A stretch of 64,000 nt of DNA, taken from the NCBI RefSeq assembly GCF_001463705.1, contig NZ_BBWH01000052.1, forward strand, positions 1 through 64,000, given 5' to 3'. Positions within the stretch are counted from its first letter, which is position 1. Every line of letters starts with the position of its first letter. A program made the position numbers and the translations under genes. This stretch comes from Aureimonas sp. AU12 (GTDB lineage Bacteria > Pseudomonadota > Alphaproteobacteria > Rhizobiales > Rhizobiaceae). Shown piece after piece: positions 8,102-13,303 of this stretch. The notes beneath the pieces are model-generated. The model saw only the letters and a list, made by a program, of their open reading frames with translations, searched no databases and was not told the DNA's origin.

Positions 8102-8265
8102 CGGGCACCCATGAATGCGGGACACGGGGGGTCGAAGCGAACGCCCCCGTCCTCCCGCCTACACGCCAAACGCTAGCGATGGGTTGCGACGGCCGCTTCA
8201 ATTCGACCGGCAGCACACCCCCGTTCCCCCTTTATTCCGCCCCGGCCCCGGCCCATATTGCCACC

Positions 8266-11316
<3,051 letters not shown>

Positions 11317-11355
11317 CATGCATGAAAATGCTGGATTATCAGTATTTAGAATAAA

Positions 11356-11386
11356 ATATCCAATAGACCTTATTCGACAAGGATAT
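11356..11386 (-). other. Inverted repeat just downstream of the RT gene
   Basis: ATATCC and GGATAT form a 6-bp inverted repeat with a 19-base loop in the AT-rich gap between the RT stop and the uvrB stop. It is a weak candidate for the RT transcript 3' end. No T-tract terminator was seen. Confidence 0.2.
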
Positions 11387-11418
11387 CGGAGATACCTAAC
11401 AATTGAGGACCCTGATTT

Positions 11419-12903
11419 TTATCTCTCGGAATTATTTCCGTATTTTTCAAGGGCCTTGTTGAGATCCATCTTTATTAGCTTACCGGCCATGCGTCGATAT
11501 CGTTTGATCTGATGGGAAAAATCGCGGTCAAAGCCAATGAATTTTACAGAAGCCTGCCGGACATATCGGATGAACGTCCAACTTTTGAAGCCAACATCTT
11601 GCCCAGCCGTAACTTTCTTCAATATCTTAATCTCTAACATCTCAGAAGGATAGTTGATTGAGATCCAATCATCCCCCTTCTGTCGATATTGTCGAACATA
11701 TCGTTTAGCAAAACCGTAGGAACGTCTCTTCAAACGACGCCAAGCATTTGAAAGGGTGGCATCTTTTATTTTTACCACTAGCCCATTAAACTCGAAGCCC
11801 AGATATTCCAGCCCATTCTTCGACGCCATTCCAAAGCAGTGTTTATAACTCTGCTGTCCTGAGATTATCGTGAATATACCGACAGCAACCTTTTTATCTT
11901 GAATCTTTATTTTAGGACCGTGATTTATAATCTCTTTTTTTAAACAATCTGCAACATCATGTGGGCTTTTAACATTCTCAATTGGGACTATGACTACGAT
12001 ATCGTCCGAGTAGCGTCGATAAATGCCGGACCGCTCAGATACCCATGCTGACACAACGGTATCGAAATCTAATAGGTAGAAATTTGCAATCAAGTCAGAG
12101 ATTGGCGTTCCCTGAGGTATTCCATACTTAAATGGATTTTTCTGAAGTAGACTAGGAAGATTAGGATCGCCACCGCAAACCTTCGCCCGAAAGTCCTTTG
12201 GCGAGAGTAATTGGACATGCCGAAGGGACCGCAATCTATCGATCCGCCTCATACGCCGCTCTACCTTGCTAGCGCCTTCACCTTTTTTATATAGCTCCAG
12301 CCTCTCAAACAATTTTTTTGAGTCAACAGTCACGTAATTTGTGAGAGACTTCAATACCTTATTGTGATCGGCAGGAAGCACGCCGCCCATTAGCAACTTC
12401 CAGTTTTTTTCAATTATTCCATGATCTAAACTATCAAAGTAACTACTGATATCAACGACGGTGGCAACACAATTGCCGGCTTTTTGAACGAATCGGAATA
12501 CATCGACGGCAAAGTCGATATTGTTTTTCCCAGCGCCGCTCGGCCCTATTATCTTCCTATATGCGATAGGAACGTCGGAGATTTCGCGTTTAGAAAGTTC
12601 CTCCTCGTAACAAGGAAGGAGAATAGCTCTATATCTAGCGTATATCGCAGCATCTTTGCGAGAAGCATAACGTATAGGGCGCGATTTTTTCTTACCGACC
12701 CCGTCACCGCGATACCTTATCCATTCTTCCTTAAACGAGAGAAGCGGATAAAATGAATGTTTTGCTACTAAATCTGGGCTGTTAGCCAAGCTTTCAAGAT
12801 TTTTTCTTGAAACCTTACGATCAAAGTGAAAATATCTCTTTTCATCTTTGTCTCGCATTTTCCAGTAACTGGTGCGAGTGGAGGCAGCAACACCACTAGG
12901 CAT
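11419..12903 (-). CDS. Reverse transcriptase of the defence-associated (UG/Abi-like) type
   Basis: This 494-residue protein is a reverse transcriptase. The palm motifs are intact: ATVVDISSYFDSLDHG with the catalytic Asp at 151, KYGIPQGTPISD at about 259-270, the catalytic YSDD at 298-301, and LEYLGFEF at 366-372. No retron VTG motif, group II maturase/HNH region, Avd gene or integrase is present. The roughly 120-residue basic C terminus is likely the thumb plus a helical extension. A single RT gene behind an AT-rich noncoding leader resembles DRT2/DRT9-type defence systems; the class cannot be fixed without phylogeny. Base composition is far more AT-rich than all neighbours, indicating horizontal transfer. 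GGAGG lies 13 bases before the ATG and is inside a hairpin. A second in-frame Met at residue 16 is an alternative start. Confidence 0.85.
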   Translation of the reverse strand: MPSGVAASTRTSYWKMRDKDEKRYFHFDRKVSRKNLESLANSPDLVAKHSFYPLLSFKEEWIRYRGDGVGKKKSRPIRYASRKDAAIYARYRAILLPCYEEELSKREISDVPIAYRKIIGPSGAGKNNIDFAVDVFRFVQKAGNCVATVVDISSYFDSLDHGIIEKNWKLLMGGVLPADHNKVLKSLTNYVTVDSKKLFERLELYKKGEGASKVERRMRRIDRLRSLRHVQLLSPKDFRAKVCGGDPNLPSLLQKNPFKYGIPQGTPISDLIANFYLLDFDTVVSAWVSERSGIYRRYSDDIVVIVPIENVKSPHDVADCLKKEIINHGPKIKIQDKKVAVGIFTIISGQQSYKHCFGMASKNGLEYLGFEFNGLVVKIKDATLSNAWRRLKRRSYGFAKRYVRQYRQKGDDWISINYPSEMLEIKILKKVTAGQDVGFKSWTFIRYVRQASVKFIGFDRDFSHQIKRYRRMAGKLIKMDLNKALEKYGNNSER

Positions 12904-12921
12904 GGTAACGTTACTGCCTCC
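12880..12921 (-). promoter_or_regulatory. RBS-sequestering hairpin spanning the RT start codon
   Basis: On the RT transcript GGAGGCAG (containing the Shine-Dalgarno GGAGG) can pair perfectly with CTGCCTCC located in codons 6-8 of the RT. The 26-base loop holds the AUG and the palindrome GTAACGTTAC. Such a structure would keep translation low unless opened by RNA binding or melting. Pairing is seen directly; regulation is inference. Confidence 0.5.
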
Positions 12922-13255
12922 GCCAAAAAATCATGGCCTAACAAGCCACTAAGTCCTTAAAACGAAGTATGCTATAATGTCAGCGTATTAGCTAAGATAG
13001 ATATCATTATGTCTATCATCGCTATCGCACATCACGTAACGAAAACTAAGAGGTAGCTCGAATGCGTCGAACATTGCTCTTGATTGCCGCCATTATGATG
13101 GTTGACAGTCCAAACATGTGCCTCGCCGCGTAACTGGCGATCCAGGCAAGCCCGTATGAGAACCCTCACAGGCTCTAGCTACGTTCGCAGGTTGAATAAT
13201 TCAAGTCTCCAATGGACCTCATGGTCAGTTTTTAGCTAATTCCCATTGGGTCGTG
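12922..13255 (-). ncRNA. Candidate RT-associated noncoding RNA / leader
   Basis: The roughly 330 bases upstream of the RT gene are AT-rich like the RT, contain no long ORF, and hold several inverted repeats. These are CCAATGG/CCATTGG (13209-13215 with 13243-13249), AGCC/GGCT enclosing TGAG/CTCA (13149-13174), and AGCG/CGCT enclosing GATAGA/TCTATC (12982-13023). A U6 tract (12925-12930) lies just before the ribosome binding site. In DRT2, DRT9 and retrons an RNA encoded upstream of the RT is the template. That this region plays the same role is inference from position. Ends are approximate and no clear sigma70 promoter was found. Confidence 0.35.
13062..13133 (+). CDS. Possible 23-residue hydrophobic peptide ORF
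   Basis: On the strand opposite the RT, an ATG with GAGG eight bases upstream opens a 23-codon frame. It reads MRRTLLLIAAIMMV, then SPNMCLAA and stop. The product looks like a lone signal peptide: two Arg, a hydrophobic core and an A-x-A-like end. It may be the truncated 5' end of an exported-protein gene broken when the AT-rich island arrived, or chance. It lies antisense to the candidate ncRNA. Confidence 0.25.
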   Translation: MRRTLLLIAAIMMVDSPNMCLAA

Positions 13256-13303
13256 CCGATTCAAGGTATCGACTTCGCTTGACTTGCAGCCGCCCCTCGT
13301 ACC

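What the first reader, a model, noticed from the sequence alone, without database searches (positions are those of the whole stretch)
11317..13290. AT-rich island with a lone defence-type reverse transcriptase next to uvrB
The base composition changes abruptly right after the uvrB stop and returns to GC-rich near 13290. The island has one intact RT (Asp151, GIPQG, YSDD) and no retron, group II or DGR partner genes. A single RT with an upstream noncoding region is the layout of DRT2/DRT9-type phage-defence systems. The YSDD box and the C-terminal basic helical extension do not let me place it in a known class, so it may be a new or poorly sampled UG group.
Basis: partly seen in the sequence, partly recalled or inferred. 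Interest (0 to 1): 0.85.

Follow-up and report, generated by a model that had tools for sequence, protein, structure and literature searches.

The report
Phage-defence reverse transcriptase, closed neo gene
This is a divergent relative of the bacterial phage-defence system DRT2, which copies a small RNA into repeated DNA to build a hidden toxin gene; its relatives keep that gene endlessly open, but here the repeats would encode a short, normally terminated protein.

Summary
In detail: an AT-rich island (40-44% G+C against 65-74% around it) after uvrB carries one intact RT (494 aa, minus strand) and no partner gene. It is not an unplaced UG group. By HMM, sequence and fold its nearest known relative is DRT2 (PADLOC 407 bits, next family 56; Z 33.4 to the DRT2 structure, next 22.8). 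It lies in a mostly alphaproteobacterial clade with a longer RT; all six members tested score below NCBI's Drt2 cut-off.

The upstream region matches a DRT2-type ncRNA: covarying terminal stem, template with -35/-10 boxes in reverse order, short microhomology at both template ends. In 58 of 60 non-redundant clade loci the predicted repeat (114-150 nt) is a multiple of three with one stop-free, usually hydrophobic frame, a never-ending neo gene; the jump uses GT (sometimes CT), not the published ACA.

The window is one of the two exceptions. Its 152-nt repeat would join a 12/12 sigma-70 promoter, but the frame breaks at the Shine-Dalgarno, giving a closed 48-aa ORF whose TAG lies 5 nt before the next ATG. 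Either neo is damaged here, or this is a closed, translationally coupled version. I cannot decide: roughly 0.47 and 0.38. Nothing was tested in cells.

The parts
11419..12903 (-). DRT2-lineage reverse transcriptase, 494 aa; D151, GIPQG, YSDD; C-terminal region with a WTF..Y motif
12874..13150 (-). predicted ncRNA, about 275 nt (ends estimated from hairpins and relatives, not mapped)
   Evidence: inference
13123..13140 (-). hairpin 5' of the template, TCGCC/GGCGA; compensatory changes in L140 (TCACG/CGTGA) and L136 (TCGCT/AGCGA)
   Evidence: read by eye
12964..13115 (-). predicted template, 152 nt, with 4-nt microhomology GTTT at 13115-13112 and 12963-12960 (RNA sense)
13102..13107 (+). TTGACA, -35 box of the promoter that forms only across a repeat junction (TGTCAA in RNA sense)
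12973..12978 (+). TATAAT, -10 box of the same promoter; 17 bp from the -35 box when 152-nt repeats are joined
13048..13053 (+). Shine-Dalgarno-like AAGAGG inside the repeat
13062..13115 (+). first part of the junction-spanning ORF: MRRTLLLIAAIMMVDSPN, running to the junction
12964..13056 (+). second part of the same ORF in the next repeat: EVCYNVSVLAKIDIIMSIIAIAHHVTKTKR, stop TAG at 13054-13056, 5 nt before the next ATG; 48 aa in all
12880..12921 (-). terminal hairpin of the ncRNA (GGAGGCAG 12921-12914 / CTGCCTCC 12887-12880) with the annotated RT start codon in its loop
11317..13290 (.). AT-rich island; left edge is the uvrB stop, right edge set by composition only

Best explanation
The island is a DRT2-type phage-defence locus: one RT plus an upstream ncRNA that serves as template. 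By analogy with K. pneumoniae DRT2, the RT copies the 152-nt template, jumps from its 5' end back to its 3' end by GTTT microhomology and makes tandem-repeat cDNA; once double-stranded, each junction forms a consensus sigma-70 promoter that transcribes the repeats. Relatives would thereby encode a stop-free hydrophobic Neo polyprotein. Here the repeat is not a multiple of three and the frame breaks at the Shine-Dalgarno, so each junction would encode a closed 48-aa hydrophobic protein (MRRTLLLIAAIMMVDSPN-EVCYNVSVLAKIDIIMSIIAIAHHVTKTKR, stop) whose TAG lies 5 nt before the next start. Shown from sequence: family, template anatomy, in-register microhomology, frame statistics, closed ORF at L=152. 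Inferred: RNA expression, concatenation, transcription, toxicity, defence. The confidence below is for this anatomy and mechanism; whether the closed ORF is damage (0.47) or a working form (0.38) is split in the first two rivals, which are sub-cases of it, and I lean slightly to damage.
For: Family: PADLOC Drt2 E 2.7e-122, 407 bits; the best family of another name, RT_UG17, has 56 bits. PDB best hit DRT2 9c0i, 160 bits. AlphaFold model pLDDT 85.4, pTM 0.84; 9c0i Foldseek E 6.6e-33 and Z 33.4 over 410 residues at 2.8 A, next row Z 22.8. Template sites: motif models that leave out the window and its three nearest relatives score its 5' and 3' sites 17.4 and 14.9 bits; the best of 500 mononucleotide shuffles gave 16.2 and 8.2. 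Jump register: at 17-bp promoter spacing the bases at -8 and -7 of the 5' site equal those of the 3' site in 90% and 100% of 60 loci; no other spacing from 12 to 22 has two adjacent positions that high, though spacing 16 has one (0.97 at -6); of 18 loci printed, three carry CT/CT. Known Drt2 plasmid loci run as positive controls gave never-ending repeats with junction promoters: L011 111 nt, 12/12; L010 138 nt, 10/12. Neo in the clade: 58 of 60 loci have a repeat divisible by three with one sense frame open; 10.1 of 58 expected from a Markov-1 null; the other two sense frames are open in 2 and 1 loci. Mean hydropathy +0.62 in the neo frame, -0.27 and -0.96 in the other two; above zero in 55 of 58. 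Window: a 12/12 promoter arose in 0 of 400 Markov copies, at least 11/12 in 17; each half of the ORF is stop-free in one frame only, the expected one. Terminal stem: each of 8 pairs has at least one compensatory change in 20 sequences.
Against: Nothing was tested in cells. The window scores 317 bits against NCBI's Drt2 cut-off of 390 and fails the multiple-of-three rule. The published ACA positions are not conserved in this clade, so the jump site is inferred. The three antisense frames of the repeat are open in 19, 18 and 10 of 58 loci, more than the sense off-frames. In the neo frame pN/pS is 0.90, no lower than in the other frames (0.87, 0.74), over eight independent pairs: only openness and hydrophobicity look kept. 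A looser scan with any microhomology did not discriminate: never-ending solutions in 50 of 60 real loci and 185 of 300 Markov copies, and it missed loci that have one at the -8 junction. Three low-scoring loci (L020, L015, L050) change 3' site on re-seeding, leaving 56 of 60 loci with d%3 = 1. Two of the 8 stem pairs are broken in 5 and 2 of 20 sequences, two more in one each. One shuffle came close to the window's 5' score.
Confidence: 0.78

Rival explanations
1. Damaged neo (sub-case of the best explanation): an indel at the Shine-Dalgarno broke a formerly never-ending frame, so the RT may still make concatemers but the locus defends poorly or not at all.
For: 58 of 60 loci keep the frame. 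[quoted passage not shown] The window's nearest relatives in the tree, L140, L136 and L101, and L155 have in-frame repeats, so the break is not general in this subclade. Decay is common in the set: the RT looks interrupted in L031, L059, L021, L045, L044 (single-ORF coverage), L155 and L156.
Against: RT intact; promoter 12/12; microhomology 4 nt; both halves still open and hydrophobic; the stop lies at the next start rather than somewhere inside. Of those seven loci with an interrupted RT only L156 also has a frame-broken repeat.
Confidence: 0.47
2. Closed neo (sub-case of the best explanation): the repeat carries complete short genes whose stop sits at the next start, so ribosomes terminate and restart repeat by repeat and release 48-aa monomers instead of an endless polyprotein.
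For: The three frame-broken loci found each have a one-repeat-long ORF with its stop within 8 nt of the next ATG: window TAG at -8, L055 TAA at +8 (50 aa), L156 TGA at +1, an ATGA overlap (45 aa). Random single indels in in-frame repeats give such a layout in 17% of draws, so about 3% for the two loci with intact RT and 0.5% for all three. Window and L055 are not neighbours in the tree. A single Kpn Neo repeat already reduced colony count and size (PMC12039810, passages).
Against: Only 3 loci; the distance limit was chosen after seeing the data, and the start codon was chosen by its Shine-Dalgarno among several in-frame ATGs (three in L156, where the other two would put the stop at +31 and +61). 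In L156 the RT is broken as well. L055's product is not hydrophobic (-0.12). In KpnDRT2 toxicity rose with repeat number and out-of-frame changes killed defence.
Confidence: 0.38
3. The repeat is really in frame: an assembly error of one or two bases, or a jump one base off, hides a never-ending ORF.
For: The window comes from a 92-contig assembly; a T run in the 3' site (RNA sense GTTTT) could let the jump slip.
Against: As sequenced, the first half is open only in one frame and the second half only in another, so no unit divisible by three can be stop-free, whatever the exact jump; the scan at spacings 16-18 also found none.
Confidence: 0.08
4. Not a concatemer-making system: a UG RT of another kind whose leader only happens to resemble a DRT2 template.
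For: Below the curated Drt2 cut-off.
Against: 58 of 60 clade loci with an open frame, in-register microhomology and fixed promoter spacing; DRT2 is the best fold match by a wide margin.
Confidence: 0.05

Closest known systems
DRT2 (UG2), K. pneumoniae type, with neo (PMC11100668, PMC12039810)
   Same: One RT with an upstream ncRNA; RT sequence and fold; -35 and -10 boxes in reverse order in the template, 17 bp apart only after concatenation; start codon inside the repeat; hydrophobic product
   Different: RT 69 residues longer than the solved one (494 against 425 aa); GT (or CT) rather than ACA at the template ends; in the window the repeat is 152 nt, not a multiple of three, and the ORF is closed; the annotated RT start codon lies inside the ncRNA's last hairpin
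DRT9
   Same: Single RT plus ncRNA defence layout (PMC12489045, abstract start)
   Different: PADLOC 46.5 bits against 407 for Drt2; Z 17.1 against 33.4; DRT9 copies a poly-U tract (PMC12632851, passages), while the longest T run I see in this leader is six (12930-12925)
DRT10 (UG17; PMC12632851, passages)
   Same: RT with an ncRNA that makes tandem-repeat cDNA
   Different: RT_UG17 only 56 bits; DRT10 has co-encoded SLATT effectors, and I see no second gene in this island

Membership tests
DRT2 (UG2) | RT closest to Drt2 among RT families | tested here: met
   PADLOC 407 bits, next family 56; PDB 9c0i best
DRT2 (UG2) | score above NCBI's curated Drt2 cut-off (NF041746, 390 bits) | tested here: not met
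   317 bits; five other clade members 309-353, two plasmid Drt2 controls 489 and 567
DRT2 (UG2) | ncRNA directly upstream with a template and a conserved 3' scaffold | tested here: met
   by sequence only; expression not testable here
DRT2 (UG2) | promoter that forms only across repeat junctions | tested here: met
   TTGACA-17-TATAAT at L=152, boxes in reverse order in the genome; the promoter scan of genomic DNA does not list the pair
DRT2 (UG2) | ACA-1/ACA-2 at the template ends | tested here: not met
   clade identity at -12, -11, -10 only 0.18, 0.33, 0.17 at S=17; GT at -8,-7 instead. The window does have ACA at -12 of the 5' site but not opposite it at the 3' site
DRT2 (UG2) | repeat divisible by three with a stop-free frame (neo) | tested here: not met
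   L=152, ORF closes after 48 aa; met by 58 of 60 clade loci
DRT2 (UG2) | concatenated cDNA after phage infection, Neo toxicity, defence | not testable with these tools
   needs experiments
Group II intron or retron RT | RT nearest to these families | tested here: not met
   group_II_RT_mat 44.6 bits (cut-off 300), retron St85 39.9 (cut-off 235), Drt2 317
DGR RT | RT nearest to DGR RTs | tested here: inconclusive
   best DGR row Z 22.8 against 33.4 for DRT2; no template or variable repeat was searched for as such

The most novel reading that the evidence does not exclude
Closed, translationally coupled neo: an RT builds tandem copies of a complete small gene, each closed by a stop codon at the next start, so infection yields many 48-aa monomers rather than one endless polyprotein. 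A second new element, in the window and three relatives, is an RT start codon inside the ncRNA's terminal hairpin, which could force a choice between making RT and making ncRNA.
Probability: 0.38. Interest if true: 0.78.

Novelty: new variant of a known kind. Interest (0 to 1): 0.6.

Why it matters
The DRT2 preprint reported that Neo annotation was harder in divergent DRT2 clades and suggested alternative mechanisms there (PMC11100668, section 10). For this clade the sequence gives a simple answer: neo is predicted in 58 of 60 loci, with GT (or CT) rather than ACA at the jump. I cannot tell whether this clade was among those the authors meant. The clade offers natural tests of what neo must keep (openness and hydrophobicity rather than sequence), and the window is a natural out-of-frame case that asks whether an endless ORF is needed for defence at all.

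Tried and rejected
New UG group: rejected, Drt2 is the best match by a wide margin. Group II and retron: rejected. The first genome-contig scan with the single protein found no relative; the 4-row alignment found 167, of which the best 80 are held. Rfam: five sub-threshold matches near the island, judged chance. Borders of the island: no tRNA, no convincing flanking repeat. Clean empty site: not found; in 19 of 19 held relative loci similarity ends within 10 nt of the uvrB stop, and what follows in the roughly 1.5 kb held differs. Loose exhaustive scan for never-ending solutions: uninformative. Purifying selection on the Neo sequence: none seen. First junction guess (12 nt from the -35 box) left 6 of 65 loci without an open frame, four of them only through a stop in that 12-nt piece; moved to -8 on the register evidence. 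A second viral-contig scan, with the subclade alignment, found nothing. Searches of the genus, the family (two partly overlapping draws) and two relatives' genera gave no further frame-broken relative with an intact RT. A motif-seeding step used a mod-3 condition; one search repeats it without. Not examined: templates of the other DRT2 loci held (L065-L094, L096, L097). Print: the searches listed no title or abstract start on a closed neo or on this clade; they cover open-licence PMC papers only. Papers: PMC12039810, PMC12632851 and PMC12596737 seen as passages, PMC11100668 as passages plus section 10, others as search listings only; no supplement was seen.
Full report
Observation. The island is real. 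G+C is 0.40-0.44 between 11501 and 13000, 0.60 at the edges and 0.65-0.74 beyond. It holds one large ORF, 11419-12903 on the minus strand, 494 aa, with D151, GIPQG and YSDD. uvrB precedes it and a carbonic anhydrase gene follows.

Identity of the RT. PADLOC puts it in Drt2 (407 bits, E 2.7e-122; the best family of another name, RT_UG17, has 56 bits). NCBIfam also names Drt2 first, but at 317 bits against a cut-off of 390; five other members of the clade score 309-353, two plasmid Drt2 proteins 489 and 567. In the PDB the first hit is DRT2, 9c0i. An AlphaFold model from 33 clade sequences (pLDDT 85.4, pTM 0.84) matches 9c0i with Z 33.4 over 410 residues at 2.8 A; the next row, a DGR RT, has Z 22.8 (Foldseek also ranks 9c0i first). 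In a tree of 88 RTs the window sits in a group of 58 rows, mostly alphaproteobacterial by their record titles, apart from the plasmid Drt2 proteins L010 and L011; the tree has no outgroup and is rooted at the midpoint, so whether the group lies inside or beside classical DRT2 is open. Its nearest relatives are L140, L136 and L101 (a set of four with SH-aLRT 100; 54, 52 and 50% identity).

Distribution. Among 21 genomes of the genus, 2 carry the family at E <= 1e-20: the window's own and G009, where it is on contig C30 and uvrB on C23. The G009 contig has the length of a record titled Aureimonas sp. Leaf324 contig_9, so the genus is probably Aureimonas. uvrB is in 21 of 21; in 19 of 19 relative loci held, similarity to the window ends within 10 nt of the uvrB stop. 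In the family, 11 of 297 genomes (E <= 1e-30) and 11 of 394 (E <= 1e-60, another alignment) had a match, the window's own included; the two draws overlap. Clade members also occur on Azospirillum and Paracoccus plasmids and in one viral contig (L095). The gene is sporadic, as expected for a defence gene that moves.

The hidden template. In KpnDRT2 the ncRNA template holds -35 and -10 boxes in reverse order; concatenation brings them 17 bp apart and creates a stop-free ORF (PMC12039810, passages; PMC11100668, passages). The same layout lies upstream of this RT and its relatives: TGTCAA in RNA sense stands 185-290 nt upstream of the tblastn match in 43 of 52 loci, and an ATTATA-like box, mostly followed by a CGTCG-like stretch, lies 85-123 nt further on. 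Motif models built without the window and its three nearest relatives find both sites in the window (17.4 and 14.9 bits; the best of 500 mononucleotide shuffles gave 16.2 and 8.2). As positive controls, two plasmid loci annotated drt2 (L011, L010) gave never-ending repeats of 111 and 138 nt with 12/12 and 10/12 junction promoters.

The jump. [quoted passage not shown] No other spacing from 12 to 22 has two adjacent positions that high; spacing 16 has a single one, 0.97 at -6. Of the 18 loci printed, most have GT at both ends and three, L137, L139 and L100, have CT at both ends, which fits a pairing requirement. The ACA positions are not conserved in the clade. The window has four matching bases, GTTT.

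The hidden gene in the clade. With the junction there, 58 of 60 non-redundant loci have repeats of 114-150 nt that are multiples of three, and all 58 have the same sense frame open around the whole repeat; 10.1 would be expected from a Markov-1 null. The other two sense frames are open in 2 and 1 loci; the three antisense frames in 19, 18 and 10. Re-seeding the 3' motif without any mod-3 condition gives the same site in 57 of 60 loci and d%3 = 1 in 56 of 60. The product is hydrophobic (mean +0.62; above zero in 55 of 58), the other sense frames are not on average (-0.27, -0.96). Yet pN/pS in eight independent pairs is 0.90 in the neo frame and 0.87 and 0.74 in the others, so the exact sequence is not visibly conserved. 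The clade appears to keep an open, hydrophobic, repeatable frame and little else.

The window. Its repeat is 152 nt, from 13115 to 12964 in RNA sense. The junction promoter is TTGACA-17-TATAAT, 12 of 12; none of 400 Markov copies gave 12/12, and 17 gave at least 11/12. From the ATG at 13062 the frame runs MRRTLLLIAAIMMVDSPN to the junction, then EVCYNVSVLAKIDIIMSIIAIAHHVTKTKR in the next repeat, and stops at TAG 13054-13056, directly after the Shine-Dalgarno AAGAGG and 5 nt before the next ATG. Each half is stop-free in one frame only, and the two frames differ; hydropathy is 0.82 and 0.67 for the halves and 0.72 for the whole. It follows that no unit divisible by three can be stop-free here, wherever exactly the jump falls.

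Damage or design. One other locus of the 60 breaks the rule, L055 (142 nt), which is not close to the window in the tree. A later find, L156 (134 nt), has a broken RT and resembles the window's relatives, but was not placed in a tree. All three have a one-repeat ORF whose stop lies within 8 nt of the next ATG, taking the ATG with a Shine-Dalgarno; L156 has two further in-frame ATGs. Random indels give this in 17% of draws, so chance is about 3% for the two with intact RT and 0.5% for all three, with the limit set after the fact. Against design stand the rule in 58 of 60 loci and the KpnDRT2 data, where out-of-frame insertions cost more than 1000-fold of defence (PMC11100668, passages). I hold damage at 0.47 and a working closed form at 0.38; these are judgements, not computed.

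RT start inside the ncRNA. The ncRNA's terminal stem has 8 predicted pairs, each with at least one compensatory change across 20 sequences; one pair is broken in 5 of them, one in 2, two in one each. In the window, L140, L136 and L155 the RT ORF begins at an ATG in the loop of this hairpin. In L140, L136 and L155 I read no ATG, GTG or TTG codon between it and the conserved region; the window has a second ATG at codon 16, so its true start is open. If RT and ncRNA are processed from one transcript, as proposed for KpnDRT2 (PMC11100668, passages), one transcript could hardly give both. This is inference.

Family and novelty. It works like DRT2 as far as sequence can show, but three features (the NCBI cut-off, the ACA motifs, the multiple-of-three repeat) were tested and not met, so I file it as a DRT2-lineage variant and not as a classical member. 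Nothing has been tested in cells.

Noticed in passing
L155 (G1076): The RT of this relative is split, its N-terminal part and the rest lying some 2.5 kb apart, while its neo repeat (141 nt) is still open. The intervening DNA was not identified.
   Followed up: partly
L156 (G1116): RT in several fragments; repeat of 134 nt, with the stop and start of neighbouring copies overlapping as ATGA.
   Followed up: partly
NCBIfam NF041746: The curated Drt2 cut-off (390 bits) leaves out all six members of this clade that were scanned, so such genes are likely to get generic names.
   Followed up: partly
L014 (G094), L031, L059, L021, L045, L044: RT reading frame looks interrupted in these loci although the neo repeat length stays a multiple of three; neo may outlive the RT, or these are sequencing errors.
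   Followed up: no
L136, ncRNA scaffold: A tandem duplication of about 22 nt between template and terminal stem.
   Followed up: no
L065-L094, L096, L097: Bacteroidota, Bacillota and other DRT2 loci were fetched but their templates were not examined; Bacteroidota use other promoter boxes (recalled), so a junction promoter there would have to look different.
   Followed up: no
L017, L056: Clade members in records titled Solirubrobacterales (Actinomycetota) and Acidicapsa (Acidobacteriota), suggesting transfer far outside Alphaproteobacteria or misbinning.
   Followed up: no
window 8179-11316: The uvrB ORF is 1045 aa, with Pfam UvrB domains between residues 211 and 859 and long extra ends; much of the C-terminal end is shared in the genus.
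   Followed up: no
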